Shown piece by piece: positions 5,763 to 54,166 of a stretch of 64,000 nucleotides of DNA (positions are counted from its first letter, which is position 1; the number at the start of each line of letters is the position of its first letter). This DNA is from a virus: the IMG/VR virus record IMGVR_UViG_3300022700_000177, positions 1-64,000 of that record; one strand, given 5' to 3'. A program made the translations under genes and the position numbers. Below the pieces are notes generated by a model. That model had not been told where the DNA came from. It did not search any database and saw only the letters and a list, made by a program, of their open reading frames with translations.

Positions 5763-6461
5763 ATGACCTACATTCAAATCACTACAAGGTGCAACATGCG
5801 TTGTCCACACTGCTGCTACTCATGTACAGAGGATGGACAAGACATGGACATCGAAACATTCAAAAGGGCAGTTAAGGAATCGGATGAGATTGAGGATAGT
5901 GGTATAACTATTGGGGGTGGAGAACCCACACTTCATCCCCAATTTTGGGAGTTCATGGGTATTGCTTTGAGTGCATGGTGTCTTGACGATTTGCCTTTAT
6001 TCATTGCCACTAATGGTTCAAACAAAGACATCTCCATGAGGCTTGCACACATGGCAAAACGGGGACTGATTCATGCAGCTCTGTCCGTTGATGATTTTCA
6101 CTTAGGCATAGATGAGTCAGTGCTAAAGGCTTTCGGCTATTACAGGTCCAGGAAACAGCCTTCCTGGCCTTATGTGGGGCAATACAACACTACGCCAACA
6201 GACTTACGAGAAATCAGAAATGTCTCCTCAAATGTTGCAAACATTGGGAGGGCTGTTGAGAATGGTTTAGGAGTTTCTGATCGTTGTGTATGTGAAACCC
6301 CATTCATCACACCAACAGGCGAAATTTATATGTGCGGTTGTCAAGAGTTTCTTTTAGGTGATATTTTTAATGGGTATGCTTTCCCTGAAGGTTACCATGA
6401 CTTGGATGAGAGGTGTTCAAAGGAATATTTTCAAATGTTAGAGGAAGAGGAGGCGATATGA
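5763..6461 (+). CDS. Radical SAM enzyme
   Basis: This 232-residue protein has the radical SAM cluster motif C10-x3-C14-x2-C17 (CNMRCPHC), which binds a 4Fe-4S cluster and cleaves S-adenosylmethionine, and a GGGEP motif at 51-55. More cysteines near residues 175-200 (CVCETPFITPTGEIYMCGC) look like part of a SPASM-like auxiliary cluster region, but the domain is short. The next gene overlaps by four bases (ATGA) and encodes an unknown protein that could be a partner or substrate. The modification catalysed cannot be told; it is clearly distinct from the QueE gene at 25044. Confidence 0.85.
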   Translation: MTYIQITTRCNMRCPHCCYSCTEDGQDMDIETFKRAVKESDEIEDSGITIGGGEPTLHPQFWEFMGIALSAWCLDDLPLFIATNGSNKDISMRLAHMAKRGLIHAALSVDDFHLGIDESVLKAFGYYRSRKQPSWPYVGQYNTTPTDLREIRNVSSNVANIGRAVENGLGVSDRCVCETPFITPTGEIYMCGCQEFLLGDIFNGYAFPEGYHDLDERCSKEYFQMLEEEEAI

Positions 6462-14103: not shown

Positions 14104-14441
14104 TGTGGGATTCAATAGACTGTGCCCTAAACGCCTTCAATCCTGAAAACTACCTATCAATTCATGAATTTCCTAATATACTTAAAACCTCTGAAGAGGA
14201 GTCAATAGAAAATTCAATAGTTAATAAATTAGCATTTCTGGAGTCTATTGATGAGGATGCCTTATTCATTGTCAACCTCATAAAAGCAGACTTACCTGAA
14301 CTTTACAGTGATAAAACCGATAAGATTACAAAGTATATGCTGAGAAAATATCTAAAGAAAATGGGCTGGAGTGAAAGGAAAATATCCAGAATATTTTCAG
14401 AGTTAGGTAACCACTATAAAATGTGTTTCGAGGAGTACTGA
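14100..14441 (+). CDS. Hypothetical helical protein with possible C-terminal helix-turn-helix, 113 aa
   Basis: The start is ATG 14100 (ATGATG, overlapping the upstream stop). The first 65 residues are acidic. The last 40 (MLRKYLKKMGWSERKISRIF) have the spacing of a helix-turn-helix. The stop overlaps the helicase start by one base (TGATG), so the product is made together with the helicase. Confidence 0.55.
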   Translation: MMWDSIDCALNAFNPENYLSIHEFPNILKTSEEESIENSIVNKLAFLESIDEDALFIVNLIKADLPELYSDKTDKITKYMLRKYLKKMGWSERKISRIFSELGNHYKMCFEEY

Positions 14442-15811
14442 TGATTGTTGTATTAAAAATACTAAACTCCTGTATCACCGAGATAACCCCCAATGGTTAT
14501 AAGGTGTTAAAGGAAAAATTAGCGTTTGAGGATGTCTTTTATAAACCGACACCTTATGGTCCAAAGAAAGCTGTCCAGTATTATAAGACAATGGTTTCGA
14601 AATCCAAGAGTGGTTATTTCATACCTACGGGGCTTTTAATGCACGCAGTTGCAATCCTGGAGTCTGAAAAAATCAAGTATGAAATCATAGGTGAGCAAGA
14701 AAAACTTCCAGTAAAAAAGCCAAAGCTAAAAGGTATTACTTTTCGTGATGACCAGGAAAGAATGATAGACTCCGCTTTACAAAAACAAAGAGGAGTTTTG
14801 ATTGCACCTACAGGTACTGGCAAATCTATTCTTGCGTTGGGAATCATGTCAGCCCTGCCAAAGAAAGCGAAAATACTATTCCTTGCACACACAGTTGACC
14901 TCGTAAAACAATTCAAAGCCGATTGCGAAAAATATGGATTTGATACAGGACTTGTTCAGGGTCAGAGTAAAGACATTTCTAAACGAGTGACCTGTGCTAC
15001 AATTCAAACGATAAGCAAACTTGATTGGAGAGAAATTTCTGATCATTGGGACACTGTTCTCATAGACGAGTCCCATAAAGTAAGCTCTGTCAAGAACAGA
15101 TATTCAGACTTCCTACAAAGGCAGTTAGCCCCAATGAAAATTGGATTTACTGCTACTATTCCAAAAGAAGGGGAAGCAAGATGGTGTTCTGACGCTTTCA
15201 TAGGTCCCCCAATTGATGAAGTGACTATGGATGAAGGGGTTGAGAATGAAATGCTCACACCTCCAATTGTTAAAATCTTGACATACCAAAGGGTGCATGG
15301 AGATCCAAATATAAGACAGTATAAGGATTACTATAATACCTTCATTGTAAACAACCCAACAAGAAACAGATTGATTGTCAAAGCAGCAAAACATCACATA
15401 GACAAGGGCCAGTCTGTTCTTATCTTTGTTAGCAAGATTTCTCAAGGAGATATTTTACAACAATTGGCTAAAGATAAAGGCTTAACTGTCCCTTTCTACA
15501 GAGGCCAATCCCCAAGTGACGAAAGAGAAGACGCTTTGAAAAGAATGAAAAGTAAGGACATTCTTGCCTGTATATGTACCACAATTTGGAAAGAAGGTAT
15601 TAACATTCCGCCTTTGAATGTAATAATCAATGCTTCTGGTGGCAAATCTGACATTCAAACGATTCAAGTAATTGGAAGAGGCACAAGAAAATTTGAGGAT
15701 AAAGACAAACTGATCGTTTATGATTTTGTTGATCCATACAGGTATATTGCAGATCATTTTTGTTTGAGATTGCTTATGTACAAAAACTTAAAATGGGAGG
15801 TGAAGTTTTGA
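14441..15811 (+). CDS. UvsW-like superfamily 2 DNA helicase
   Basis: This 456-residue protein has helicase motif I APTGTGKS at 122-129, motif II DESH at 209-212, motif III-like GFTATI near 235-240 and motif VI QVIGRGTR near the C-terminus, the order of SF2 helicases. The roughly 100-residue N-terminal region before the helicase core matches the layout of phage UvsW, which remodels recombination and replication forks. ATG 14441 follows CGAGGAG; the upstream GTG at 14423 lacks a site. It sits upstream of the primase and likely serves replication restart. Confidence 0.85.
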   Translation: MIVVLKILNSCITEITPNGYKVLKEKLAFEDVFYKPTPYGPKKAVQYYKTMVSKSKSGYFIPTGLLMHAVAILESEKIKYEIIGEQEKLPVKKPKLKGITFRDDQERMIDSALQKQRGVLIAPTGTGKSILALGIMSALPKKAKILFLAHTVDLVKQFKADCEKYGFDTGLVQGQSKDISKRVTCATIQTISKLDWREISDHWDTVLIDESHKVSSVKNRYSDFLQRQLAPMKIGFTATIPKEGEARWCSDAFIGPPIDEVTMDEGVENEMLTPPIVKILTYQRVHGDPNIRQYKDYYNTFIVNNPTRNRLIVKAAKHHIDKGQSVLIFVSKISQGDILQQLAKDKGLTVPFYRGQSPSDEREDALKRMKSKDILACICTTIWKEGINIPPLNVIINASGGKSDIQTIQVIGRGTRKFEDKDKLIVYDFVDPYRYIADHFCLRLLMYKNLKWEVKF

Positions 15812-16483: not shown

Positions 16484-16743
16484 AATACCCAAGTTTGTGG
16501 ATAAAAATAAGACAAATAAACCCAATATTTCTTGCCAGAGAATGTCGCAAATGCGAAATGCTGGTAAAAAGAGAAACCTTATGGAAAACTTCAACAAATG
16601 ACGGTAATAATAGGAGAGCTGGACATTCTGGTAATGTTTACAGATACCCTGAATTTTATTGTTTTGACTGCTTCCCAACAAAAGAAAGTTTAACTGAATA
16701 TTTGTTGAAAGGGAGAGAAACTACAAAATATAGGTTTAAATGA
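16480..16743 (+). CDS. Small cysteine-containing protein, 87 aa
   Basis: The gene starts in an ATGA overlap and ends in an ATGA overlap with the primase. CRKC near residue 22 and CFDC near 65 could form one zinc site. Tight packing just before the primase suggests a replication-linked role, but nothing direct shows it. Confidence 0.55.
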   Translation: MKYPSLWIKIRQINPIFLARECRKCEMLVKRETLWKTSTNDGNNRRAGHSGNVYRYPEFYCFDCFPTKESLTEYLLKGRETTKYRFK

Positions 16744-17645
16744 TGCAAGTAGATACCTTAGCACTACTTAGGGATCTAAATATTCCCTATAAAGAAACAG
16801 GTAAAAATGTGAGTAGTGGATGGGTTGGTGTGAATTGCCCATTTTGCACTGACCCATCATACCACATGGGAATCAACGTTGAAAACGCAACATTTTCTTG
16901 TTGGAGGTGTAGAGAACGGGGTTTTATTGTCAGATTTGTAGAAGAAATTTTGAATATCGACAACAAGGCCGCTTATGGCTATTGCTTGCAGTTCTCAGAT
17001 CGCCAGGAAGGCTTCTCCTTGAACCCACAATCACCCACAGAGTCTAAGCCTAACATAGATGCCATAACACTACCCGGAGAATCTCCTGGACCTAATTCCC
17101 AGAGTTTTAGATATTTGGAATCGAGAGGGCTCAATGCTGGGTTCGTTTCTGAATATTTTGAATTGCAGGAGACTGACTATAGTGACCCAGAGTTCAAATA
17201 TCGAATAATAATTCCAGTATATATCAAAAGAAAATTAGTTACTTTTTTAGGTAGAGATTATACTGACAAAGCAAACCTCAGGTACAAAAACTTATCAAAG
17301 GAAAAGTCAATCATTCCTGTGAAAAAAACAATACTGAACTATGACAAGATACAAAAGTCCTGCTTTATTACAGAGGGTCCTTTTGATGCGTTTGCATTAG
17401 GTGAAGATGCTACTTGCTTATTTGGATCGGAATATACAAAGGAACAAATTGAATTATTGTATAGCAAAGGTTTAGAAAGAGTGGTTGTTATTTATGATCC
17501 AGAAGCATTTCAAATAGGAGAACAATTAGCAAATGAGCTTGCAGGATTTGTACCAGATGTTAAAGAGGTTCAACTTGACCCAGGACAAGACCCAGGTAGT
17601 TTGCCAAGAAAAGAAGTATTCCAGATCAAGAGGTTACTTAGTTGA
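16740..17645 (+). CDS. DNA primase (CHC2-like zinc finger plus Toprim)
   Basis: This 301-residue protein has an N-terminal zinc ribbon with C33/C36 and C54/C57 and a Toprim domain with TEGPFDA at 211-217 and YDPEA at 252-256, the acidic metal-binding residues of bacterial and T7-type primases. It would make RNA primers for lagging-strand synthesis. It lacks a fused helicase; the DnaB-like helicase is separate at 21025. The -35 box of a strong promoter overlaps its stop codon. Start ATG 16740 or 16743. Confidence 0.85.
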   Translation: MMQVDTLALLRDLNIPYKETGKNVSSGWVGVNCPFCTDPSYHMGINVENATFSCWRCRERGFIVRFVEEILNIDNKAAYGYCLQFSDRQEGFSLNPQSPTESKPNIDAITLPGESPGPNSQSFRYLESRGLNAGFVSEYFELQETDYSDPEFKYRIIIPVYIKRKLVTFLGRDYTDKANLRYKNLSKEKSIIPVKKTILNYDKIQKSCFITEGPFDAFALGEDATCLFGSEYTKEQIELLYSKGLERVVVIYDPEAFQIGEQLANELAGFVPDVKEVQLDPGQDPGSLPRKEVFQIKRLLS

Positions 17646-17670
17646 CAAAACTAAATTTATTGTGTATCAT
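17642..17670 (+). promoter_or_regulatory. Strong sigma-70-type promoter
   Basis: TTGACA at 17642-17647, a 17-base spacer and TATCAT at 17665-17670. It overlaps the primase stop and points into the 860-base gene-free region before the rep gene. The same -10 sequence is used at 25737. Confidence 0.8.
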
Positions 17671-17676
17671 AGATTC

Positions 17677-17900
17677 TTCCCTGCTGGAGGAGCTTTGGGT
17701 TTTACCTCCAATTTGACCAGACCTTCTCCAGTCTCTTCCTCCTTCTCCTTGTTGGGGCAGCTTTTGATCGGCTGCCCCAACCCACCTTTATTATCTGCAA
17801 GGTCTCACCATTATTTCCTACAAAAACAAGTGGTACTATCAAAAACCTTTTTTAGGTATCAAAGGTGCCTACCTCTCTATCTACAAGAGAGATTTTTTAT
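17677..17900 (+). ncRNA. Putative structured non-coding RNA
   Basis: This stretch lies directly downstream of a strong promoter and has no plausible gene. It contains a perfect 11-bp hairpin (17751-17761 with 17771-17781), competing pairs among TGGAGG (17685), CTGGAG (17684), CCTCCA (17705) and CTCCAG (17726), and ends near a CTCTCT/AGAGAG stem (17873-17891) followed by ATTTTTTATTA. The mutually exclusive pairings suggest a regulatory RNA or attenuator controlling replication; this is inference. It could also be a long leader for the rep gene. Confidence 0.5.
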
Positions 17901-17932
17901 TAGTCTGGAATTTAATATCAAAGTTTATCTTT

Positions 17933-18122
17933 AGGAATCCGTCGTCACTCCGCAGGAGCAAGGACATATTCCTGAGAATAGCAAAGTATTTCCTAATAAT
18001 ATTTTGATACCGAAGGTAGGAGCGTTACTACTCACTCCATATTCGCGTAGCGAAGCGGAGCGAATAGGAGTGTTTAACTCCGAAACGTAGCTTCGCGGAG
18101 CGAAGCAGAGTGGAGGAGTTAA
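17933..18122. repeat. Cluster of three inverted repeats next to the origin
   Basis: Three palindromes lie in a row: AGGAAT/ATTCCT with an inner CTCC/GGAG (17933-17973); CACTCC(A)TATTCGC/GCGAATAGGAGTG (18033-18072); and TTAACTCC/GGAGTTAA enclosing GCTTCGC/GCGAAGC (18074-18122). The last two are GC-rich compared with the surroundings and share AGCGAAGCGGAGCGAA-like loops. They may be structural elements of the origin, a terminator or a small mobile palindromic element. Confidence 0.6.
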
Positions 18123-18235
18123 GTTTGGGTTTGAATTTATTTAGGAAGGATGGTTTTCCTTATAAAGAACTCTTTCTTATAAGAACTTACCGAAAGGCAA
18201 TCCGCTATTGAAAACATCGAGATACCTTGATCTCA

Positions 18236-18311
18236 TTTACTTCTCAATCATCATTATTTTACTTCTCAATCATCATTATTTTTTCGCCACCTTTACTTCT
18301 CAATCATCATT
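18236..18311. repeat. Three iterons of the replication origin
   Basis: The 20-base unit TTTACTTCTCAATCATCATT occurs exactly at 18236, 18258 and 18292. Spacing is 22 bases, then 34 bases, so the first two lie on the same DNA face. Directly repeated sites of this size upstream of a Rep gene are typical binding sites for a plasmid replication initiator. Confidence 0.85.
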
Positions 18312-18450
18312 TTTTTTCCTTTTTTTGCCTACAATTACAAAAAAATTATTGTGAATAACCTTTGTAAATAAGCGTTTTTATAAATTAAAATTGAAAATAA
18401 GTATTGCTCTTTATCATTTTTTTATTATTCTTTAGGAATACAAATAAAAT
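18305..18450. other. Probable origin of replication: AT-rich unwinding region with DnaA-like box
   Basis: Directly after the iterons the sequence is nearly all A and T with T runs. TGTGAATAA at 18350-18358 is the complement of TTATTCACA, a good match to the DnaA box. Iterons, DnaA box, AT-rich stretch and rep gene in this order are the standard parts of an iteron origin. Confidence 0.7.
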
Positions 18451-18454
18451 TACG

Positions 18455-18483
18455 TTGACAATGTGTAATTTTTAATATATTAT
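18455..18483 (+). promoter_or_regulatory. Promoter of the rep gene
   Basis: TTGACA at 18455-18460, a 17-base spacer and TATTAT at 18478-18483, 25 bases before the rep start. A second TATAAT overlaps downstream at 18483. Iteron-bound Rep protein could repress it, as in many plasmids. Confidence 0.8.
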
Positions 18484-18507
18484 ATAATAAAAATAAGGGG
18501 GCTTACA

Positions 18508-19278
18508 ATGAAAGAAACAGACTATTTTTCTACAAATTTAAACTTCATAGAATATCCATTATGGGATATTGGTTATGCCAATTCAAACTATCAAACCAGA
18601 ATAATTTATTCAAAAAAAGGTACTTTTAGGAGGTCTTCATCTTTAAAACCACCTACAAGACTTGATTGGTTGTTTCTAAATTATTTATTAAAATCAATAC
18701 AAGGTGAAAAAAATAATAAAGGATTAGCACAACTCAGTTTGTCCCATAAAAATATTATAACAAACTCAGGAATCTGTTATTCCAATGAAACAATAGAAAG
18801 ATTAAGAGATTCCTTAAATAGATGGGCGCATACAACTTTAAAATTTGAAGGGAATTTGTATGAAAAAAATAAGCATGTGTTTATGACTTTCGGTATTATT
18901 TCTAATTGGGAATTTGTCAAAGGTTCAAAAAGTAAAATTTTAATAACCCTTGATAATAAGTTTTTATGGTGGGCTAATGAAGCCCGATATACAAAATCTT
19001 TTGACTTTTCTGTGATGAAAAGAATAAGTAAACCTTTGAATTTGAGGCTTTATGAATTATTTGATTCAAAAAAGTTGTTTTTAAGTCAAGGGAAAATATG
19101 GGAAAACGATGTGGAAATGTTTGGTCAGAAAACAACTATAAACTATAAACATAGCAGTGATGTTGTATTTAAGGTTAAAAGGGCCTTACCAGAAGTTTCT
19201 GAATATCTTGGATTTCAGGTTCTTCATAAAGTTAAAGCCTCAAAAACAGGCAGAAATATAATATTCTTCAGAGAATAA
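18508..19278 (+). CDS. Plasmid-type replication initiator protein
   Basis: This 256-residue protein has the general character of RepA/Rep_3-type initiators: two winged-helix-like halves, with 'WDIGYANSNYQTRIIYSK', a 'LDWLFLNYLL' helix, 'LSLSHKNIITNSGI' and 'LNLRLYELFDSKKLF' in the order seen in that group. It would bind the three iterons at 18236-18311, melt the AT-rich region and recruit the helicase at 21025. ATG 18508 follows AAGGGGG. It stands alone under its own promoter, and the neighbouring gene also has its own. Confidence 0.7.
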   Translation: MKETDYFSTNLNFIEYPLWDIGYANSNYQTRIIYSKKGTFRRSSSLKPPTRLDWLFLNYLLKSIQGEKNNKGLAQLSLSHKNIITNSGICYSNETIERLRDSLNRWAHTTLKFEGNLYEKNKHVFMTFGIISNWEFVKGSKSKILITLDNKFLWWANEARYTKSFDFSVMKRISKPLNLRLYELFDSKKLFLSQGKIWENDVEMFGQKTTINYKHSSDVVFKVKRALPEVSEYLGFQVLHKVKASKTGRNIIFFRE

Positions 19279-19321: not shown

Positions 19322-19350
19322 TTGACAATATATAAATAAAAGTATAAAAT
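19322..19350 (+). promoter_or_regulatory. Promoter of the helicase operon
   Basis: TTGACA at 19322-19327, a 17-base spacer and TAAAAT at 19345-19350, in the 107-base gap between rep and the next gene. It probably drives 19386 through the DnaB-like helicase. Confidence 0.75.
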
Positions 19351-19553: not shown

Positions 19554-19585
19554 TAACATAAGTGATAATTGAATTGGAGGTTCAA

Positions 19586-19966
19586 ATGAAAAAAGAGGAA
19601 CTTCGCAAAAGAGTACAAGAAAGGCAACATAAAGATATGGAACCCTGCCCTTTATGTGGAGGAAAAGATTTATCTCCACAAACCCCAATACAAATGGATT
19701 CTGAAGAAATTGATTTTAATGATCCTGATGCAGCAAAAAAACTTTTAGGGTTATATGTTAGGACAATGAAAAATACAGGTGGGTTACTTAAAGGTCCCGT
19801 ATATTTCATATGTAAAAATTGCAGGTTTAAAGGTGGAGAAGTGGATTGCACAGGAAGAACATCAATAGATGTAGGAAAAGACAAAGAAGTTTACAAAAAA
19901 ATGAAACAAGAGTGGAATAAAAAAGCAAAAGCTTCAAGAGGGATTGTTGAAAATGAGAATACTTGA
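19586..19966 (+). CDS. Zinc-ribbon protein, 126 aa
   Basis: CPLC near residue 20 and CKNC near 75 form a split zinc ribbon. ATG 19586 follows TTGGAGG. The C-terminal 30 residues are basic. It overlaps the next gene by 14 bases and belongs to the replication operon. Confidence 0.6.
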   Translation: MKKEELRKRVQERQHKDMEPCPLCGGKDLSPQTPIQMDSEEIDFNDPDAAKKLLGLYVRTMKNTGGLLKGPVYFICKNCRFKGGEVDCTGRTSIDVGKDKEVYKKMKQEWNKKAKASRGIVENENT

Positions 19967-20975
19967 AATATTAGATTCCATAAGACGCTCAATAGAGGAC
20001 AACCCTTCCTTTTATTCGGAAAAAGTGGAAGAAATTTTATCAACTGCCCTCTCAGAAATCCCCGAAGATCAACGAAACCACTTAATTAAGGAAGTACAGG
20101 CCCTTCTTGTCCCTTTTGTCGGAAAAAAAGGTGAAGAGCCAAAAAAACTTAAACGCAGGAAGTTAACTAAAAGGGAAAGATTATCAAAAGTCAAAACCGA
20201 TAAAGAACCAGAAGAGAAAAAGAAACCAAGATTTAAGGAGTTAGAATATCCAGTAAAGAAATGGGTGGACTACTATATAAATCACGCAAAAGCACCAAAG
20301 CATAGAGAACATACAAGAAAAATGAACATGATTATTGCGAGGATTGAGGATTTAATGACGGCTAAATTTAAAGTTTTATCTGGTTTAACTTTTAATTATA
20401 GTTCTTTTTCTTTTGAGGACTTTCAATACTCTGTTGATAATTACAGGAAAGCTGCATTAGATTGGGCTTACAAACCAAGAAACAAACACCATTTGTTAGA
20501 TGAAAACAAAAGACTAATATCACTGGAAGCTTTTATATTCAACCCTAACAACGCCACGAGACCTTCATTATTTATGTACTTTTTAGAAAATCCAGCAGAG
20601 CTTAAACATCAATCAGAGTATCAAGAATTAGTTCAACTTATAATAAATAAATATAGGGAAAGTTTAAAAATAACAAAGGTTGAATTTAATGAGAAAGACT
20701 TAGATTGCTTTAATAAATCAGCTACGAAACTTAAGGAGTTCAAAAAAGACAATGGTATTGAAGTTAAAGACGCTCAACTTGTGGCCTATTTGATAGATGC
20801 TCTTAATAAAAGGTATAAGGATGATTTTTACATAGCTTCATTAGCAAGCCACACCACATTTAACACTGTACTACCAAACTATATGAAGAAATTGAATGTA
20901 ACAACTTCAAAGACAAGGGAAGAACAGAGGAAGAAACAAAGGGAATTTTTCAAAAACAAAAACATTGTAGGATAA
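19953..20975 (+). CDS. Putative helicase loader or replication accessory protein
   Basis: This 340-residue protein has no recognised motif. It has an acidic helical N-terminus, a very basic linker (about residues 60-95), and a helical body. Its place directly before the DnaB-like helicase, in the same operon, is where phages often encode a helicase loader. The assignment is by position only. ATG 19953 is preferred over TTG 19944. Confidence 0.5.
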   Translation: MRILEILDSIRRSIEDNPSFYSEKVEEILSTALSEIPEDQRNHLIKEVQALLVPFVGKKGEEPKKLKRRKLTKRERLSKVKTDKEPEEKKKPRFKELEYPVKKWVDYYINHAKAPKHREHTRKMNMIIARIEDLMTAKFKVLSGLTFNYSSFSFEDFQYSVDNYRKAALDWAYKPRNKHHLLDENKRLISLEAFIFNPNNATRPSLFMYFLENPAELKHQSEYQELVQLIINKYRESLKITKVEFNEKDLDCFNKSATKLKEFKKDNGIEVKDAQLVAYLIDALNKRYKDDFYIASLASHTTFNTVLPNYMKKLNVTTSKTREEQRKKQREFFKNKNIVG

Positions 20976-21024: not shown

Positions 21025-22566
21025 ATGGCAATAGAGGTCCGTGCTGTTAATAAGGATTCCTCTTTAGAAAAACAAATCACACTCTCAATACTGACTTCAA
21101 CAGAGTTCTTAAAAAGGATACGTTATTCCTACAACAAGGACTATTTCCAAAATTCAGCAATGGCTTTGATCTCTTATTGGGCCATCGAATTTTTTGACAA
21201 TTACGGGGAAGCCCCTAAAGAAAACATATTTAGAATATTTGATGTAGAAAAGGAGGATTTAGACTCAAGCATTATACCTGTAATAGAAGGTGTATTGCAA
21301 AGAGTTACAAGTCAACAACCAGATGCCTTAGAATACATCCTTGAAAAGACGAAAAGCTATTTTGAGAAAAGGGATCTATTGCTGACAGCAAGGAGAATGG
21401 AAAGTCTTGCAGAGAGAGGTTTGGTTGACAAAGCTAAAGAGGTTAGGTATGACATAACAAAAAGCGTTGAATTGGTACAAGATGACTTTAGGGATATTTT
21501 AGATGAACACACGATTGAGACAGCATTAAATGCGAAGAAGGAAACAACCCTGTTTACGTTTCCAGGGGTTGTTGGCAACATTATTAAGCCATTACGCAGA
21601 GGCGAATTTATAACGTTTCAGGGTCCAGGAAAAAGGGGGAAAAGTTGGTGGCTTGTTTACACAGCAGTACAGGCATTATACCAACGAATACCTTTTGTCT
21701 ATTTCTCATTAGAATTGCCAAGAGAAATGGTTGAGACAAGAATCTATCAAGCTTTGACAGGATTTGTAGATGAATCAGATGATACGGTGTCAGATAAAGA
21801 CGTTTTTCCTGTGTTTGACTGTAACCTCAACCAAACAGATGAATGTGCGAGAAGCGAGCGAACTTGCGATGTTGGGCTTTTATTGGAGGATGGATCAAAG
21901 CCTCCCTTTGGTAATGAGGATAGAAGATACATTCCATGTTCCAGTTGTCGCAACCACCCTGAACTGAGAGAGTTCTTTGAACCTGCAGTTTGGTATGAAA
22001 GAGAATCAAGACCGGACTTATACAACACAAAGAATGTCAAGAGTAAAATAAGAAAACTCAAAACATATTTAAGGGCTTGTGGGGTTGTTGAAAGTTACCC
22101 AAAAGCTTCAGTAACCATTGAAGATATTGAAACCAGATTAAACATTCTTGAATATGAAAGGAACTTTATACCACAAGTTGTAATAATAGACATGCTTGAT
22201 AATACAGCGAAAACTGTTGCAGATCAAAGGGCTGCCACAAATCATATTTGGGAATATGCTGACAGAATATCGAAAGACAGAAAAATTCTTTTTGTAACAG
22301 CAAATCAGGGAGGCAGAGGGGCAGCAAATAAAGAAACACAGACTGAGGATGATGTATTTGAAGATATTAGGAAGCAGCATCATGTGGATGCAATGATTGC
22401 AATTAACCAGTTAAAGAAAGAAAAACTTGAAAAATGTTGGCGTATTGGGATGCTTGCTAAACGTGATGGAATGTTTGACTCATACCACCAAGCACTCGTA
22501 TTGAGTAATTTGAGTGCGGGGCAGGTAAATTTGGATTCAACGTTTTGGTTTTCTTCTGGTGGTTAA
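21025..22566 (+). CDS. dnaB: DnaB-like replicative helicase with an unusual cysteine insertion
   Basis: This 513-residue protein has the RecA-fold core of DnaB helicases: Walker A GPGKRGKS at 200-207, 'VYFSLELPREMV' just after it, Walker B 'VVIIDML' near 385-391 and a late 'AKRDGMF' segment. Residues 266-308 carry five cysteines (C266, C274, C281, C305, C308) in an insertion after the Walker A region, possibly a zinc or iron-sulfur site not found in ordinary DnaB. It would unwind the fork and work with the separate primase at 16740. Confidence 0.85.
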   Translation: MAIEVRAVNKDSSLEKQITLSILTSTEFLKRIRYSYNKDYFQNSAMALISYWAIEFFDNYGEAPKENIFRIFDVEKEDLDSSIIPVIEGVLQRVTSQQPDALEYILEKTKSYFEKRDLLLTARRMESLAERGLVDKAKEVRYDITKSVELVQDDFRDILDEHTIETALNAKKETTLFTFPGVVGNIIKPLRRGEFITFQGPGKRGKSWWLVYTAVQALYQRIPFVYFSLELPREMVETRIYQALTGFVDESDDTVSDKDVFPVFDCNLNQTDECARSERTCDVGLLLEDGSKPPFGNEDRRYIPCSSCRNHPELREFFEPAVWYERESRPDLYNTKNVKSKIRKLKTYLRACGVVESYPKASVTIEDIETRLNILEYERNFIPQVVIIDMLDNTAKTVADQRAATNHIWEYADRISKDRKILFVTANQGGRGAANKETQTEDDVFEDIRKQHHVDAMIAINQLKKEKLEKCWRIGMLAKRDGMFDSYHQALVLSNLSAGQVNLDSTFWFSSGG

Positions 22567-24687: not shown

Positions 24688-25066
24688 ACAAATCAAAGTG
24701 GGATTGAGGTTTGAAATAAGCTATGCTCATTGGCTGCCAAGACATGGGGGAAAATGTAAAAATCTGCATGGGCACAATGGAATATGTGAGATAGTGTTCA
24801 AACAATCAATAAATTATCTTGATGACGGAATGGTAATGGACTTTTCTTTAATGAAAAACAGATTTGCAGCAGAGATAAAAAACAGATTAGACCATAAATA
24901 TCTTAATGAATGTTTTGATTGGAGACCCACAGCAGAGAACACCGTAATTTTTATCAAAAATGAATTGAAAGCTATGTTGAATTGTAAGGGTACTGATCAT
25001 GTAAAACTCCATAAAGTCAAATTTTGGGAGGATAGGGATTCTTATGCAGAGTGGGAAGATAAGTGA
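24677..25066 (+). CDS. queD: 6-carboxy-tetrahydropterin synthase QueD
   Basis: QueD converts dihydroneopterin triphosphate to 6-carboxytetrahydropterin, step two of 7-deazaguanine synthesis. The 129-residue protein has zinc ligands H18, H31 and H33 (AH and LHGH), catalytic C27 (GKCKNLHGHN), LDH at 71-73 and PTAENT at 84-89. It overlaps queE by 23 bases and is preceded by the ribbon-helix-helix gene in an overlap. FolE, which supplies its substrate, is at 26517. Confidence 0.9.
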   Translation: MTSEQIKVGLRFEISYAHWLPRHGGKCKNLHGHNGICEIVFKQSINYLDDGMVMDFSLMKNRFAAEIKNRLDHKYLNECFDWRPTAENTVIFIKNELKAMLNCKGTDHVKLHKVKFWEDRDSYAEWEDK

Positions 25067-25697
25067 AATTTTTAGATCGTTTGATGGAGAGCATAACCGT
25101 TTTGGAATAGGGGCACCTTCTATCTTTATAAGATTTTATGGCTGTTCCTGCGATTGTTCCTATTGTGACACCAGACAAGTTTCCTTTAAAGAATACACAG
25201 TTGATGAAGTTTTCAAGGATATTGGGAGGCTGAAAGCAAATACCGTTAAGAAATTGACAATTACAGGAGGTGAGCCATTAGAACAACCTAAATTCTTTTT
25301 GGAATTGACAGATTTCTTGAGTTCGCAGAGATATAGCATGACAGTTGAAACAAATGGTAAACATCCAAGAACACCGTATGACCCAAATATTTCATTTGTT
25401 ATGGACTGGAAGATGCCAAGCTCTGGATGTTATGATGAAAATGATTTAACAAATATTTTGACATTAGAAGATGAGGATAGCGTAAAATTTGTGATTGATG
25501 ATCAAAAGGATTTTGAGACTGCTGTTCATTGTGCCGGTTATTTACTTAACCATGAGTTTACAGCAGAACAGATAGTATTTTCTCCAACATATTCCGCAGA
25601 TCATAATAAAGCAAAAATTCTTTCAAATCAGATGATCAGTCACAATTTGCCTTATAGGATCTCTTACCAAATGCATAAAATTATTCATATTAAATAA
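25044..25697 (+). CDS. queE: 7-carboxy-7-deazaguanine synthase QueE
   Basis: QueE is a radical SAM enzyme that turns 6-carboxytetrahydropterin into 7-carboxy-7-deazaguanine (CDG). The 217-residue sequence begins 'ISEIFRSFDGE', has C34-x3-C38-x2-C41 followed by DT, GGEP at 75-78 and ends 'YQMHKIIH', all typical. The usual next enzyme, QueC, which makes preQ0 from CDG, is not found in this window, so CDG may be the end product made by the phage. Confidence 0.9.
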   Translation: MQSGKISEIFRSFDGEHNRFGIGAPSIFIRFYGCSCDCSYCDTRQVSFKEYTVDEVFKDIGRLKANTVKKLTITGGEPLEQPKFFLELTDFLSSQRYSMTVETNGKHPRTPYDPNISFVMDWKMPSSGCYDENDLTNILTLEDEDSVKFVIDDQKDFETAVHCAGYLLNHEFTAEQIVFSPTYSADHNKAKILSNQMISHNLPYRISYQMHKIIHIK

Positions 25698-26516: not shown

Positions 26517-27071
26517 ATGCCTACGAAAGCATTTGTTGAAAATCTGGTGTCCCATTGGAAAGAAGACCCTAATCTTCAAGAGACACCAGAAAGAATTGAA
26601 CGAATGTATAGGGAAGAGCTTTTCAAAAATGTGGATAAGGAATTTACAGATTGGAAAGCATTCCCTAATGAGAAAGGTTATAATCAACTCATTGTATTTG
26701 ACAGGATTTTCTTTTCGTCAACTTGCTCCCACCATTTCGTCCCCTTCACAGGCTTTGCCTACATTGCATATATACCTGGAGATTATTTGGTGGGGGCAAG
26801 TAAGCCTATGAGAGCTGTTGAACATTACGCAGCAAGACCGCAAATCCAAGAAAATCTATGTCACGAAGTGTTACAAAGTTTCACTGAAGCAGCAAAACCT
26901 ATCGGTGCTGCTGTTATAATGAAAGCTTCTCATATGTGTGTGGTTGGTAGAGGAGCTAAACAACCTACATCAAAGATGGTTACATCTGCTTTGTTTGGAA
27001 AGTGTTTTGAGGATAAGGTAAAATGGGAAATTTTTGAACTAATTAAACTTCAAGGAGGATTACATGACTGA
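26517..27071 (+). CDS. folE: GTP cyclohydrolase I
   Basis: FolE opens the guanine ring of GTP to make dihydroneopterin triphosphate, the first step of 7-deazaguanine (and folate) synthesis. The 184-residue protein keeps the zinc ligands C70, H73 and C141 (STCSHHFVPFTG and HMCVVGRG), the substrate-binding 'GASKPMRAVEHYA' and a C-terminal 'TSALFG'. Together with queD, queE and the DpdA-like gene it points to DNA modification rather than folate. Confidence 0.9.
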   Translation: MPTKAFVENLVSHWKEDPNLQETPERIERMYREELFKNVDKEFTDWKAFPNEKGYNQLIVFDRIFFSSTCSHHFVPFTGFAYIAYIPGDYLVGASKPMRAVEHYAARPQIQENLCHEVLQSFTEAAKPIGAAVIMKASHMCVVGRGAKQPTSKMVTSALFGKCFEDKVKWEIFELIKLQGGLHD

Positions 27072-29385: not shown

Positions 29386-29880
29386 ATGTCAAGAGAATTA
29401 GAGGACCTCGTCCCAAGATTACATGACGCAGCATTGAAAATGAAGGATGCGTTTGAATTAGCTTTTAAAGATGAAAATATAGAATTGTTAATTTATTGCA
29501 CATATAGATCCTTTGAAGAGCAAGCAAAACTTTATCGTCAGGGAAGGCCCTTTCATGTCATACAAGGAATGGCAATAAGGTTAAAGAAAAAATACAATAG
29601 GGAAGACCTGCATGACATTTTATTAGGAGTTGGCCCTCAATATGGAAAGAAGGTGACTTATGCAGCTCCAGGACAATCCTTGCATAATTACAGAATGGCC
29701 TTTGATGCTGTTCCTTTAAAGGCAGGGAGGAAGCCCTTATGGAGTAAAAAAGAAGAGACATGGCAAGTATATGGAAGAATAGCAACACAATCAGGACTTG
29801 AATGGGCTGGAAATTGGAAGCGATTCAAAGAGTTTCCTCATGTCCAACTTCCAAACTTAGACTGGAGACAATTAATTTGA
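29386..29880 (+). CDS. M15-family peptidase, likely L-alanyl-D-glutamate endolysin
   Basis: M15 peptidases cut cell-wall peptides. The 164-residue protein has 'YCTYRSFEEQAKLYRQGR' (39-54), the SxHxxxxAxD zinc motif with H100 and D107, and H152 in 'FPHVQL', the third ligand. ATG 29386 is chosen because GAGGAA lies upstream and family members begin with a similar 'SR.L.DL.P'; ATG 29350 would add 12 residues. It has no signal peptide. It overlaps the DpdA-like gene, an odd place for a lysis gene. Confidence 0.75.
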   Translation: MSRELEDLVPRLHDAALKMKDAFELAFKDENIELLIYCTYRSFEEQAKLYRQGRPFHVIQGMAIRLKKKYNREDLHDILLGVGPQYGKKVTYAAPGQSLHNYRMAFDAVPLKAGRKPLWSKKEETWQVYGRIATQSGLEWAGNWKRFKEFPHVQLPNLDWRQLI

Positions 29881-30842
29881 ACCACAAAGATTTCAAACTA
29901 ATGGTCGATAGTGGGGCACACGGCCTTTTCACTCACCTTGTAAGAAAAGGCCATAGAATTGATGAATCTCATAGATGGGACTGGAAAAACTATGAATCTG
30001 ATGCGTTCAAACACTATGCGGAATACTACATACAATTCCTGAAAGAGTATAAACATCTTCTGGATTACTACATAACCATTGATGCCATTTATGAACCTGA
30101 AATATCTTATAGATGGTATAGATATTTAAAAGATGAACATGGATTAGATCCTATTCCTGTTTATCATTACAATGAACCTCTAAAGTATTTTGAGAAGTAT
30201 CTACAAGAGACTGATTATGTTGCCATATCAGGACTTGGACAGGGCATACCAAAAGATAAGTATATTAAGTGGGCTGACTCTGTTTTTGATATTGTATGCG
30301 ATAATAAAGGTGCATTGCCAAAGTATAAGATACATGGTTTAGCTTTAACATCATTGCAGATTATAATGCGGTATCCATTCTACTCTGTAGACTCAAGCAC
30401 TTGGGTACGCTATGCTCAGTTTGGAAAGATAATGTTACCAAAAGTCATAAGAGGGGAGAGAAGATATGACGTTATACCAAATGTCATTCACACCTCAACA
30501 AGATCACCCTATATGTACAATGGAGACATACAACACTTTCATAATTTATCCAAAACGGAACAAAAATTTATCTTGACATATCTGAAAGAGCTTGGCATAA
30601 AGTATGGCAAAAGTCATTTCAAAACAGTAGATAAAGATTACACACCCAAAAAACACGAAAAGACATGGGGCAAGCCAAAAGATGGAAAGCGCACCATTGA
30701 AGTTATAAAAGAATACGGTGTTTCTAATAGGCATGAATACAGATGCCTTGTAAACATGATATTCTTTTGTAGAGTGGAGCACTTTCTTAAATGGCCGAGA
30801 CCTTGGCAACATAAAAAGAAGAAATTCATGAGGATATTATAA
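29877..30842 (+). CDS. dpdA: DpdA-like DNA 7-deazaguanine transglycosylase
   Basis: DpdA enzymes are relatives of tRNA-guanine transglycosylase that swap guanine in DNA for a 7-deazaguanine. The 321-residue protein has DSGAH with D11 and a second active-site Asp, D172, in 'YSVDSSTWVRYAQFG', plus 'AISGLGQG' between, the family order. It lacks the C-terminal zinc motif of tRNA enzymes, as DpdA does. TTG 29877 overlaps the upstream stop (TTGA), with GGAG about 10 bases before. With folE, queD and queE it completes a DNA-modification route. Confidence 0.85.
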   Translation: MNHKDFKLMVDSGAHGLFTHLVRKGHRIDESHRWDWKNYESDAFKHYAEYYIQFLKEYKHLLDYYITIDAIYEPEISYRWYRYLKDEHGLDPIPVYHYNEPLKYFEKYLQETDYVAISGLGQGIPKDKYIKWADSVFDIVCDNKGALPKYKIHGLALTSLQIIMRYPFYSVDSSTWVRYAQFGKIMLPKVIRGERRYDVIPNVIHTSTRSPYMYNGDIQHFHNLSKTEQKFILTYLKELGIKYGKSHFKTVDKDYTPKKHEKTWGKPKDGKRTIEVIKEYGVSNRHEYRCLVNMIFFCRVEHFLKWPRPWQHKKKKFMRIL

Positions 30843-49028: not shown

Positions 49029-49477
49029 TGCCAGATATCCTTATCAAAAAGCAACCCAACTTCCCTGAAGGGGCTGAACATTCTATAAAGTTTCAAAAAG
49101 AAGATGACGCTTGCTTTGATCTTGTTTGTGCTGTTTATCCATATATAGAAATCAATCATAATCAAGTTTCTAAGGTATACACAGGTATTTCAATGGAAAT
49201 ACCAAAAGGTTATGAACTTCAAATTAGGCCAAGATCAGGGTTGGCATTGAAATACGGAATAACTATTGTAAACTCACCTGGAACGATAGATTCAGGATAT
49301 AGAGGAGAAATTATTGTACCAATGATAAAGATGACCTCTGGTACTTATAAAATTTTTCCAGGTGATAGAATTGCCCAGGCAAAATTATCCATTGTACCCA
49401 ATACCAAAATAATTTTTGTAAATGAGCTTTCTGAATCAGAAAGGGGTTCAGACGGCTTTGGGAGTACAGGAGTTTAA
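49028..49477 (+). CDS. dut: dUTPase
   Basis: The 149-residue trimeric-type dUTPase has all five motifs: 'ACFDLVCA', 'RPRSGLALKYGI', 'VNSPGTIDSGYRGEI', 'GDRIAQAKL' and C-terminal 'RGSDGFGSTG'. It hydrolyses dUTP to dUMP, keeping uracil out of DNA and feeding the thymidylate-synthase-like enzyme at 45703. This fits with the uracil glycosylase fused to the polymerase. Confidence 0.95.
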   Translation: MPDILIKKQPNFPEGAEHSIKFQKEDDACFDLVCAVYPYIEINHNQVSKVYTGISMEIPKGYELQIRPRSGLALKYGITIVNSPGTIDSGYRGEIIVPMIKMTSGTYKIFPGDRIAQAKLSIVPNTKIIFVNELSESERGSDGFGSTGV

Positions 49478-49478
49478 T

Positions 49479-50738
49479 ATGGAAAAAAAGAAAGTATTAT
49501 TCATAGGGGTTCACCCATCAACTGCTACCGGAAACGGTAACATGATGATGGGAATTGCATCTCAAGTTGATAGAGAAAAGTATGAACCCTATTTCCTAAC
49601 CAATACCTTTAATATGGATTTTGAAAGGTATTTAGAAGACAAAGATATCATTGATAACATCATTCCAGCAAGAAACACTGATAACGAAGATTATTGGGGT
49701 AAGCAAACGGTTGTTAGTTTAATGGGCACTGGTTACTTCGATTTGTGTTTCTTTGTCGGTGCTGACATATGGATTTATATTGACATTTTTGATCATATTG
49801 AAAAACTCAAAAATACGGAAGGATTTGAATGGGGTTTCTTATTCCCGTATGATCTCCCCTATGCAAGAGAAGATTGGATGCAATGGATTAATACTATACC
49901 TTTTCCATATGTTTATTCCGAATTTGGTTATAATATTATAAAGGATTATGTAAAAAGAATACAATATTTCAGACCGCCAAATGGAAATAAGGAAATTCAT
50001 ACAACTGAATATGAAACTTTTAATAGAGACCACTTAAAGAAAAATTTCTTTCAAGATATTGATGTAGAAAAAACTGTTATATTGGGGACAATTGGTCCTA
50101 ATCAGAAAAGAAAGAACATAGCAAGGCAGATGAAAGGCTTTGGCATTGCCAGAAAAAAACTGAAAGAAAAGTTTCCAGAATTGGAGATGATTTACTATAT
50201 CCATGCGTCACCAACAGGATATATTGATATTAACAGGTTTGCAAAAGATTATGATTTGACTGGCGGTATTATTAGAACAAAGCCTTCTGATATAAAAGTG
50301 GATGAAAAGACAATGAAAAAGCTCATTTGTTCCTTTGACTGTTTATTGAATTGTTCTTTTCAAGAAGGCTTGTCATGGACAGTATTGGAGGCAATGCTTT
50401 GTAAAACACCTGTAATTGCATCAAAATCAACTGGGCATATTGAATTGCTTGAAGATGGAAATGGTATCTTAGTCACTCCGTACGAAACTGACTTCCTAAA
50501 CTTAATGACAAAAAGCGGACCAAATCCCATTGAAATAAAAGCTTGTGATCAACACTCTATTGCAAATGCCATTGAACAGTTTGTAACCAATTACGAACAA
50601 GTTCCGGCGTTGAAAGAAAAAGCATATAATAAAGCTATTGAATGGTTATCTGGAGTAAATGATATAAACAAAATACTTGATGATATGGTTAATAGAATTG
50701 AAAAGAGTAAAAACGAAGTATGGGGGATGGAGCTGTGA
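49479..50738 (+). CDS. Glycosyltransferase, GT-B fold (family 4-like)
   Basis: This 419-residue protein begins 'KKKVLFIGVHPSTATGNGNMMMGIA', the Rossmann start of GT4 enzymes, and has 'LNCSFQEGLSWTVLEAMLCKTPVIASKSTGHIELL' with the donor-binding Glu. ATG 49479 starts one base after dut. It opens the sugar cassette at 49.5-55.5 kb. The sugar and acceptor are unknown. Confidence 0.8.
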   Translation: MEKKKVLFIGVHPSTATGNGNMMMGIASQVDREKYEPYFLTNTFNMDFERYLEDKDIIDNIIPARNTDNEDYWGKQTVVSLMGTGYFDLCFFVGADIWIYIDIFDHIEKLKNTEGFEWGFLFPYDLPYAREDWMQWINTIPFPYVYSEFGYNIIKDYVKRIQYFRPPNGNKEIHTTEYETFNRDHLKKNFFQDIDVEKTVILGTIGPNQKRKNIARQMKGFGIARKKLKEKFPELEMIYYIHASPTGYIDINRFAKDYDLTGGIIRTKPSDIKVDEKTMKKLICSFDCLLNCSFQEGLSWTVLEAMLCKTPVIASKSTGHIELLEDGNGILVTPYETDFLNLMTKSGPNPIEIKACDQHSIANAIEQFVTNYEQVPALKEKAYNKAIEWLSGVNDINKILDDMVNRIEKSKNEVWGMEL

Positions 50739-51859
50739 GTAAAATAGGAATAAGATGGAAGGGGCCTTCCCTTGATCCAAGTGGTTATGGGGAGGCCACA
50801 AGGAATTATATAAAAGGGTGTTATTATTCCGGACTCTTTGATATTCAAGTAGAACCTTGGAATTTTGAAAAAAAAGACGGAAGTTTCTATGGCGATAGTG
50901 GTATTTTAGTAGAGAAACTAAAAGAAAATAAAGTAGATCATTCAGTTGTTTTTGTCCACTGCGTACCAAATCAGATTTCAGGTTTCATTGAGCCTGGAAA
51001 ACTTAACGTAGGATACTCTACTTGGGAAACTGATAGGATTCCAAAGCATTGGGTTAAAAACATCAACAACCATTTTGATCTTCAATTAGTACCATCAGAA
51101 TATAACAAACAGGTATATATAAATAGTGGAGTTACGGTTCCTATTGAAGTCCTGCCTCATTGTATTCATATGGCAGAAATAGACTCTATACCTGCTGCCG
51201 ATTTAGAAATGTATGCAAACAAATTCAAATTTATTTCGGTATTTCAATGGACAGAAAGAAAGAACCCAATAGGGTTATTGAAAGCCTATTTTGCTGAATT
51301 TTGGGAACACAATGATGTGGTTTTAATACTAAAAAGCTATAGAAGCAACGCCTCACAAATTGAGCAAGACAAAATTATTAATGACATCAAGCATTTAAAA
51401 AATGATATGGATTTACCTAAGTACCCTCCTATATATTTCATAGGGAGTTTAATTCCACATAGAAATGTATTTGAACTTTACAAAGCAAGTGACTGTTTTG
51501 TACTACCTTCACGTTCAGAGGGCTTTGGTATCCCTATTCTTGAAGCAATGTCCTGTAGTTTACCTATTGTCACAACTAATTATGGAGGAGGTAAAGAGTT
51601 ATTATATGAGAGTGCCTCAAATGTGGGTTATTTTGAAACACCCGTATGTGGAATGCCTTGGATTCCTTATTATGATTCAACACAGCTTTGGGCAGAACCA
51701 AATATTGCAGATTTAAGATTTCACATGCACAAAATGTACATTTCAAATAAGGAATCAATTGAAAAAGAAAGTAAATGGTCTTATAAACGAGCTTGGAATT
51801 TTGATATATCAACTATCTCAAAAAAATTCTATGAAATACTGAAAAAATATGGAGCTTAA
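50735..51859 (+). CDS. Glycosyltransferase, GT-B fold (family 4-like)
   Basis: This protein has about 374 residues, with 'GIRWKGPSLDPSGYGEATRNY' at the N-terminus, 'FKFISVFQWTERKNPIGLLKAY' at the domain boundary and 'VLPSRSEGFGIPILEAMSCSLPIV', the GT4 donor motif with EX7E. GTG 50735 overlaps the upstream stop; ATG 50720 in frame is an alternative. It follows another GT4 and would add the next sugar of a glycan. Confidence 0.8.
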   Translation: MSKIGIRWKGPSLDPSGYGEATRNYIKGCYYSGLFDIQVEPWNFEKKDGSFYGDSGILVEKLKENKVDHSVVFVHCVPNQISGFIEPGKLNVGYSTWETDRIPKHWVKNINNHFDLQLVPSEYNKQVYINSGVTVPIEVLPHCIHMAEIDSIPAADLEMYANKFKFISVFQWTERKNPIGLLKAYFAEFWEHNDVVLILKSYRSNASQIEQDKIINDIKHLKNDMDLPKYPPIYFIGSLIPHRNVFELYKASDCFVLPSRSEGFGIPILEAMSCSLPIVTTNYGGGKELLYESASNVGYFETPVCGMPWIPYYDSTQLWAEPNIADLRFHMHKMYISNKESIEKESKWSYKRAWNFDISTISKKFYEILKKYGA

Positions 51860-51860
51860 T

Positions 51861-52682
51861 ATGAAAATTGCATGTGCCCTATTTGCATATAACAGACCTC
51901 ACTATTTGAAACCAGTGTTAAAATCTATAATTGGAAATACTCATTTTGATAAGGTAGACTGGTATATTATTCAAGATAGTCCAGAATATATAATGCCTAA
52001 TAAAGAAAAAAGTGTTATAAAGGAACATATAAAACCAGTTAAAGAAAGCACTGAAATTCTCAAAGATTTCAGCAACTACAAAAATGTAAAAGCCCTAAAA
52101 ATTAATCTTATAAATCAAGGAATCCCAAGAAACAAAAGTATGGTACATGATTTGGTTATCAAAGGAGGGTATGATGCCGTAATATTCTTTGAAGATGATT
52201 TGATTGTAAGCAGATATTATATAAGACTTCTGACCGAATTATTCAGTCAATTCCCCAAATATATTATTTCAGGTAGCGATTTGACAAAAGGGGAACAATT
52301 TGAAAACCCTAAACTGAATGAAATAGCAAGGTTCAATTGTCATTGGTGGGGTTATATAATGGGTATAGACGTAATTGAAATGCTACAACCCCATTTACAG
52401 GAATATATTAATGTTATTGGGCCTTGTTATCCAAAGAGACCCCATGAATTTATAAGGAAAAAATTTGGTATTCATGTTACTTCTCATGATGGATTTATTG
52501 AAAAAGTAACCAAAGACTATGGAATACAAAGGCTAAACTTTTGCTTACCAAGAAGCAGATATATTGGTGCTGTTGGAGTACATTCAAAACAAAGTATGTA
52601 TGAAGGAGCGGGTTTTAATAACTTTAAGGATTTTGAATTTGAAGAGGATGCAACCTTAACAGATTTTGTATGGAGAGATTAG
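51861..52682 (+). CDS. GT-A glycosyltransferase (GNT-I/GT2-like)
   Basis: The 273-residue protein has 'CALFAYNRPHYLKPVLKSI', 'INQGIPRNKSMVHDLVIKGGYDAVIFFEDDLIVS' with an EDD metal motif, and 'RFNCHWWGYIMG', a pattern like GNT-I-type N-acetylglucosaminyltransferases. ATG 51861 follows one base after the previous stop. It continues the sugar cassette; donor and acceptor are unknown. Confidence 0.7.
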   Translation: MKIACALFAYNRPHYLKPVLKSIIGNTHFDKVDWYIIQDSPEYIMPNKEKSVIKEHIKPVKESTEILKDFSNYKNVKALKINLINQGIPRNKSMVHDLVIKGGYDAVIFFEDDLIVSRYYIRLLTELFSQFPKYIISGSDLTKGEQFENPKLNEIARFNCHWWGYIMGIDVIEMLQPHLQEYINVIGPCYPKRPHEFIRKKFGIHVTSHDGFIEKVTKDYGIQRLNFCLPRSRYIGAVGVHSKQSMYEGAGFNNFKDFEFEEDATLTDFVWRD

Positions 52683-52683
52683 C

Positions 52684-53649: not shown

Positions 53650-54166
53650 TCACAAAAGAAAAGTTGTATTTGTCCATATACCAAGGACAGGAGGTTCAAG
53701 TATTGAAAAAGGCTTTGGTATGATGGATCCACCAAAAAAGCATCATACAGCAAGTAAACTTGTGAATAGCAAAATAAAAGATTACACCTGGTTCAGCTTT
53801 ATAAGAAATCCATATACCAGAGCATTAAGTGCTTTCTTCCAACCCTACTATAAACATATAGGTTACAAAAGCAACAAGAGCTTCATATATTTTCTTGAAA
53901 GATGGAAAGATAATTTACCTGAATGGGAAAAAGGGTTTACTCAATCTGACTATATTGACTTACCAAACATCCTTGTTTTCAGATTTGAAGATAGAAAGGA
54001 TATTTTGAAATTAATGTCAAAAGTTTTTAATTTAACTGGAATTTGCAAGATTCATGAAAAGGAAACAGGAAGTAACAAACATCTTAATTTGTTGGGAGAA
54101 AAAGAAAAGAAGATGATACAGAGATTATTTCAAAAGGATTTTATGAGGTTTGATTATGATTTCTAA
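53642..54166 (+). CDS. Sulfotransferase
   Basis: The 174-residue protein has 'VFVHIPRTGGSS' (residues 9-20), the PAPS 5'-phosphosulfate loop, and 'FIRNPYTRALSAFF' (53-66), the 3'-phosphate motif, as in carbohydrate sulfotransferases of the Sulfotransfer_2 type. It overlaps the epimerase gene by 8 bases. It would put sulfate on a sugar. PAPS must come from the host because no PAPS synthesis gene is seen here. Confidence 0.75.
   Translation: MIDHKRKVVFVHIPRTGGSSIEKGFGMMDPPKKHHTASKLVNSKIKDYTWFSFIRNPYTRALSAFFQPYYKHIGYKSNKSFIYFLERWKDNLPEWEKGFTQSDYIDLPNILVFRFEDRKDILKLMSKVFNLTGICKIHEKETGSNKHLNLLGEKEKKMIQRLFQKDFMRFDYDF

What the first reader, a model, noticed from the sequence alone, without database searches (positions are those of the whole stretch)
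17642..19278. Iteron origin and plasmid-type Rep protein inside a phage replication module
Three exact 20-base iterons, a DnaA-like box, an AT-rich stretch and a Rep gene with its own consensus promoter make a complete iteron origin. It lies between the primase and helicase genes. This suggests the element can start replication as a plasmid, as in phage-plasmids, and may control its copy number through Rep binding. No integrase was seen.
Basis: partly seen in the sequence, partly recalled or inferred. Interest (0 to 1): 0.65.

Follow-up and report, generated by a model that had tools for sequence, protein, structure and literature searches.

The report
Plasmid-type origin in a phage replisome
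A virus of bacteria that carries its own DNA-copying machinery appears to start copying from a plasmid-style origin with its own starter protein, placed where related viruses use a different built-in starter; this suggests that the start signal is a swappable part and does not show that the virus lives as a plasmid.

Summary
Three exact 20-bp iterons (18236, 18258, 18292) are the only 20-mer present three times in the 83,928-bp virus record. They precede a consensus DnaA box, an 80-88% A+T stretch, a near-consensus promoter and a Rep gene (18508-19278), between primase and DnaB-like helicase. Rep passes the Pfam RPA cut-off; its rough fold model matches RctB, RepE and pPS10 RepA before anything else. 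Alphaproteobacterial RPA plasmids likewise carry 22-bp-spaced repeats upstream of repA.

The phage-plasmid reading is not supported. No ParA, ParB, tyrosine integrase or serine resolvase was found, and the phage has its own replisome. In relatives the same slot holds an initiator gene whose C-terminal domain is conserved (54 of 79 helicase loci). Many N-termini are O-like winged helices, and some carry 21-24-bp iterons inside the gene, as in phage lambda. The window phage keeps only the C-terminal part (orf343) and has the separate Rep. No sampled relative has such a Rep.

Best explanation: a swapped origin-recognition module for vegetative phage replication. Function is inferred. A structured noncoding stretch (17677-18145) beside the origin and the orphan domain's unmatched predicted fold remain unexplained.

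The parts
14423..15811 (+). SF2 (UvsW/ResIII-like) helicase gene, left part of the conserved replication module
   Evidence: PHROG phrog_16 2e-71; syntenic in nine relatives
16740..17645 (+). DNA primase gene
   Evidence: phrog_47 2e-39; relatives 27-36% identical at the same place
17642..17670 (+). sigma-70-like promoter overlapping the primase stop codon
   Evidence: TTGACA-17-TATCAT, 11 of 12; most relatives also have a promoter-like site just after the primase gene, some weak
17677..18145 (+). noncoding stretch with strong predicted secondary structure; function unknown
   Evidence: z about -8 on the + strand and -6 on the - strand; lies in the only long noncoding gap of the record; no Rfam match
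18236..18255 (+). iteron 1
   Evidence: exact 20-mer
18258..18277 (+). iteron 2
   Evidence: exact 20-mer
18292..18311 (+). iteron 3
   Evidence: exact 20-mer
18320..18500 (.). A+T-rich stretch, candidate unwinding element
   Evidence: 80-88% A+T in most 40-base windows
18350..18358 (-). DnaA box TTATTCACA; a one-mismatch box follows at 18363-18371
18455..18483 (+). promoter of rep
   Evidence: TTGACA-17-TATTAT, 11 of 12
18508..19278 (+). rep: RPA-family iteron-type initiator, 256 aa
   Evidence: Pfam RPA 36.9 bits, cut-off 27; plasmid RepA 22-32% identical; top 13 fold matches are Rep initiators; G+C 28% against 36%
19322..19350 (+). promoter ahead of the loader and helicase genes
   Evidence: TTGACA-17-TAAAAT, 11 of 12
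19562..19966 (+). zinc-ribbon Lar-like small protein gene, possible passenger of the cassette
   Evidence: weak Pfam PF14354 and phrog_599 matches; not found in the relatives' loci
19944..20975 (+). orf343: orphan C-terminal domain of the clade's initiator, candidate helicase loader
   Evidence: 5.8e-35 to a profile built without it; no wHTH match; model pLDDT 86, no PDB or viral fold match
21025..22566 (+). DnaB-like replicative helicase gene
   Evidence: phrog_19 5e-34; seven syntenic relatives

Best explanation
The locus is the phage's own replication origin, with its origin-recognition module exchanged. In many relatives one protein does two jobs: an N-terminal winged helix binds origin DNA, and a conserved C-terminal domain is thought to bring the phage DnaB-like helicase. 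Here these jobs are split. The RPA-type Rep binds the three iterons at 18236-18311 and melts the A+T-rich stretch, perhaps helped by host DnaA at 18350. The orphan C-terminal domain (orf343) and the helicase downstream, with the phage primase and polymerase, then build the fork for vegetative replication. Shown by sequence: iterons, Rep family and fold class, the conserved slot, absence of a recognised DNA-binding domain in orf343. Inferred: iteron binding, melting, Rep-orf343 contact, helicase loading, use in lytic growth.
For: Iterons unique and exact. Rep passes the RPA cut-off and its model finds RctB, RepE and pPS10 RepA first. RPA plasmids have 22-bp-spaced repeats upstream of repA. Slot conserved: primase, initiator/loader gene, helicase. 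orf343 matches the conserved domain at 5.8e-35; N-termini in relatives match HTH_36 (11 of 44) and O-like initiator families (up to 15 of 44 for one family). Iterons in the linker of the initiator gene in L225, L224 and L231, above shuffle scores. Rep is among the most A+T-rich stretches of the record, as expected for an import. Full phage replisome. Precedent: in PLE satellites the DNA-binding domain and origin are exchanged as a unit while the C-terminal domain stays (PMC8263062).
Against: No binding, replication or read-depth data. Rep-orf343 contact and loader activity are guesses; the orphan domain has no known fold match. Several relatives also have only the C-terminal domain and no separate initiator recognised nearby, so that domain may not need Rep. 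No relative with Rep was found, so conservation of the cassette under selection cannot be tested. GC skew does not change sign at 18.3 kb. All relatives are distant (primase 27-37%).
Confidence: 0.62

Rival explanations
1. Phage-plasmid: Rep and the iterons maintain the genome as a low-copy plasmid in a lysogenic state, and another origin serves lytic growth.
For: Rep family and iteron anatomy are those of plasmids; DnaA box; mycobacteriophages with RepA or RNA origins exist (PMC7157519).
Against: No ParA, ParB, integrase or resolvase; no ParA in relatives; no repressor recognised among the proteins scanned. In the mycobacteriophages the origin is linked to parABS, which is missing here.
Confidence: 0.2
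2. The cassette is a passenger: a plasmid replicon fragment landed in the slot and Rep is idle, or acts only as a repressor or against competing plasmids.
For: Unusual base composition of rep; no sampled relative has it.
Against: Intact reading frame, promoter and three perfect iterons; insertion exactly in the clade's origin slot; orf343 lacks a recognised DNA-binding domain of its own.
Confidence: 0.1
3. An RNA-based origin: transcription from the promoter at 17642 through the structured stretch starts or controls replication, and Rep is auxiliary.
For: Strong predicted structure; some loader-only relatives (L172, L217, L232) also have structured leaders; RNA-based prophage origins exist (PMC7157519).
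Against: Coding controls also often reach z below -5; other loader-only relatives lack it (L204, L213); no sequence homology between leaders.
Confidence: 0.05
4. Assembly chimera of a plasmid and a phage contig.
For: Only one record; odd composition of rep.
Against: Both flanks continue the conserved gene order and the insert sits inside the variable slot.
Confidence: 0.03

Closest known systems
Iteron plasmid replicons with RPA (PF10134) RepA, such as Roseobacter denitrificans pTB2 and Salipiger abyssi pPABY6
   Same: Rep family; direct repeats with 22-bp spacing just upstream of rep
   Different: Rep only about 23-29% identical and shorter; those plasmids have an AAA ATPase and a ParB-like gene beside repA; here the surroundings are a phage replisome
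Phage lambda O protein and ori lambda
   Same: A phage initiator binding iterons next to an A+T-rich region; several relatives of the window phage have iterons inside the initiator gene
   Different: Here iterons lie outside and upstream of the gene, and Rep is a plasmid-type initiator, not an O-like protein
PLE satellites of Vibrio cholerae (RepA_N and ori modules)
   Same: Origin-binding part and origin exchanged while the C-terminal part is kept
   Different: There one RepA_N fusion protein in a satellite; here a separate RPA protein in a phage with its own replisome
Extrachromosomal mycobacteriophage prophages (RepA or RNA origins with parABS)
   Same: Phage genomes with a RepA-like gene, and others with a noncoding RNA origin
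   Different: No parABS here; position inside the replisome module

Membership tests
RPA-family (PF10134) iteron Rep initiators | Sequence match above the curated family cut-off | tested here: met
   36.9 bits against 27; 1.5e-11 to a profile of 33 RepAs built without it
RPA-family (PF10134) iteron Rep initiators | Winged-helix Rep fold | tested here: met
   Top 13 Foldseek matches are RctB, RepE, pPS10 RepA and MSBI1.176 Rep; model confidence is low outside residues 51-160
RPA-family (PF10134) iteron Rep initiators | Binds its iterons | not testable with these tools
   needs a gel shift or footprint
Iteron-type origin | Repeated sites of about 20 bp spaced by about two helical turns beside the rep gene | tested here: met
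   spacing 22 and 34; the second gap is not a whole number of turns
Iteron-type origin | A+T-rich unwinding stretch and DnaA box | tested here: met
Iteron-type origin | Autonomous replication of the segment | not testable with these tools
   needs cloning in the host, which is unknown
Phage-plasmid | Partition genes | tested here: not met
   ParA and ParB profiles find nothing; ParM-type search uninformative because its control did not ring; record may be truncated
Phage-plasmid | Extrachromosomal prophage state | not testable with these tools
   no host or lysogen known
Lambda O-type in-gene origin | Iterons inside the initiator gene | tested here: not met
   window iterons lie upstream of rep, 18236-18311 against a start at 18508; relatives L224, L225, L231 do have in-gene iterons

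The most novel reading that the evidence does not exclude
The phage clade carries a standing plug-in slot: a helicase-recruiting domain of a fold not seen in solved structures, kept constant, to which different origin-recognition parts are attached or supplied apart (O-like winged helices with in-gene iterons, a plasmid RPA Rep with upstream iterons, and perhaps structured transcripts in members that have only the constant domain).
Probability: 0.3. Interest if true: 0.68.

Novelty: new variant of a known kind. Interest (0 to 1): 0.5.

Why it matters
It would be a natural example of a tailed phage running its own replisome from a plasmid-type iteron initiator supplied as a separate protein. 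It makes a general question testable: how initiators of different ancestry hand over to the same phage helicase. The comparison also points to a widespread phage initiator domain with no recognised fold. Exchange of origin modules may be driven by origin-directed attack, as proposed for PLE satellites (PMC8263062).

Tried and rejected
Direct search for Rep in viral contigs, phage genomes and 24 related records: no match; an alignment-based scan of viral contigs confirmed none, and a profile search in 79 helicase loci also found none. Nucleotide searches with the origin region gave only chance-level, mostly A+T-rich hits. Rfam scans found nothing. The idea that a structured leader is a general feature of the clade was weakened: coding controls are often as structured. 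A separate initiator in loader-only relatives was looked for and not recognised. Sequence-profile search of PDB with the Rep and loader alignments gave nothing; only the fold comparison of Rep did. A plasmid partition system was sought and not found; the ParM search is uninformative because its control failed.

Full report
Setting. The window is bases 1-64000 of an 83,928-bp virus record without terminal repeats. It is a tailed phage. Genes run on the + strand to 54.7 kb (replication, nucleotide metabolism, queuosine-type genes, glycosyltransferases) and on the - strand beyond (tail, tape measure, major capsid, protease). It encodes primase, DnaB-like helicase, a DNA polymerase, clamp loader, gp32-like protein, UvsX, exonuclease, SbcC and SbcD parts, thymidylate synthase and ribonucleotide reductase. 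I recognised no terminase or portal, and the right end cuts an open frame, so the record is probably incomplete.

Observation. Three exact copies of TTTACTTCTCAATCATCATT lie at 18236, 18258 and 18292. Nothing else in the window comes within three mismatches, and no shuffle of 100 gives three. No other 20-mer occurs three times in the record. A strict DnaA box (minus strand) starts at 18350, a weaker one at 18363. From about 18320 to 18500 the sequence is 80-88% A+T. The rep promoter scores 11 of 12 at 18455. Rep (256 aa) passes the Pfam RPA cut-off.

What Rep is. By sequence it is a distant member of the RPA family. Matches are mostly alphaproteobacterial plasmid-type RepAs at 22-32% identity, found partly because the search patterns came from that group. 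A profile of 33 such proteins without Rep recognises it at 1.5e-11. A structure model made with them is fairly confident only for residues 51-160, yet its best matches in the PDB are RctB, RepE, MSBI1.176 and pPS10 RepA, all Rep-type initiators. In two of the plasmids, repeats spaced 22 bp lie upstream of repA, as here. Paracoccus plasmids show the same layout of three iterons, in one group followed by a DnaA box, upstream of rep (PMC3832669).

The slot in relatives. Fifty-four viral contigs share the capsid protein. None of 24 records searched has Rep or the RPA family (the RPA control rang in one genome). Seven have primase and helicase in the same order. Between them lies a gene whose C-terminal part is conserved and whose N-terminal part varies. 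A wider search with the helicase gave 79 loci; 54 encode the conserved C-terminal domain. Of 44 such proteins, 11 match HTH_36 and up to 15 match one O-like initiator family. In L225, L224 and L231, repeats of 21-24 bp in the linker of the initiator gene exceed all 438 shuffle scores; L245, L189, L193, L199 and L206 show weaker ones at the same position. L225 has the winged-helix-like N-terminus but its C-terminal part was not recognised by the profile. [quoted passage not shown] The window's orf343 belongs to the conserved domain family (5.8e-35 against a profile built without it) but has no recognised DNA-binding domain.

Reading. The simplest account is a split initiator. Rep and its iterons replaced the origin-recognition part, and orf343 kept the part next to the helicase. 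Rep's low G+C content (28% against a mean of 36%) suits an import. In PLE satellites the DNA-binding domain and the origin are exchanged together while the C-terminal domain stays (PMC8263062). That is a precedent for the pattern, not proof of the mechanism here. Iteron binding, contact between Rep and orf343, and use during lytic growth are inferences. The direction of change is also inferred: all relatives are distant, and some of them too have only the C-terminal domain.

Why not a phage-plasmid. ParA, ParB, tyrosine integrase and serine resolvase profiles find nothing in the record while ringing in control genomes, and ten relatives lack ParA. Mycobacteriophages that replicate as plasmids carry the origin beside parABS (PMC7157519). 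Truncation and an unusual maintenance system remain possible, so I give this reading 0.2.

Loose ends. Bases 17677-18145 are strongly structured (z about -8 and -6 on the two strands) behind a near-consensus promoter, and match no Rfam family. Some relatives have similarly structured leaders, but the coding controls were often as structured, so I do not claim a clade-wide RNA. The orf343 model is confident (pLDDT 86) and matches nothing in PDB or the viral fold library below E 0.001, so its loader role rests on position only.

Verdict. The finding is real, its plasmid interpretation is not supported, and the comparison gives a better one. It is a new variant of a known kind, with moderate interest.

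Noticed in passing
window 17677-18145: Strongly structured noncoding stretch of about 470 nt behind a near-consensus promoter, with no Rfam match; lies in the only long noncoding gap of the record.
   Followed up: partly
window 19944-20975 and 54 related loci: A conserved, mostly helical C-terminal domain of phage initiators next to the helicase gene; confident model without a match in PDB or the viral fold library.
   Followed up: partly
L225 6330-6440, L224 534-620, L231 4708-4800: Iterons of 21-24 bp inside initiator genes of uncultured phages, lambda-like.
   Followed up: partly
window 5763-6461, 25044-25697, 26517-27071, 29802-30842: Two radical SAM genes, GTP cyclohydrolase I and a queuine tRNA-ribosyltransferase-like gene: a possible 7-deazaguanine DNA modification set.
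   Followed up: no
L081 about 880-1600 and L082 about 800-1200: Very strongly structured stretches (z down to -11 and -13) upstream of the UvsW-like helicase gene in two related phages.
   Followed up: no
window 49422-54166: Two glycosyltransferases, a nucleotide-sugar epimerase and a sulfotransferase-like gene close together.
   Followed up: no
L002 17825-19927 (record 81825-83927): A protein of about 690-700 aa without any family match, open at the record's end; terminase and portal not recognised.
   Followed up: partly
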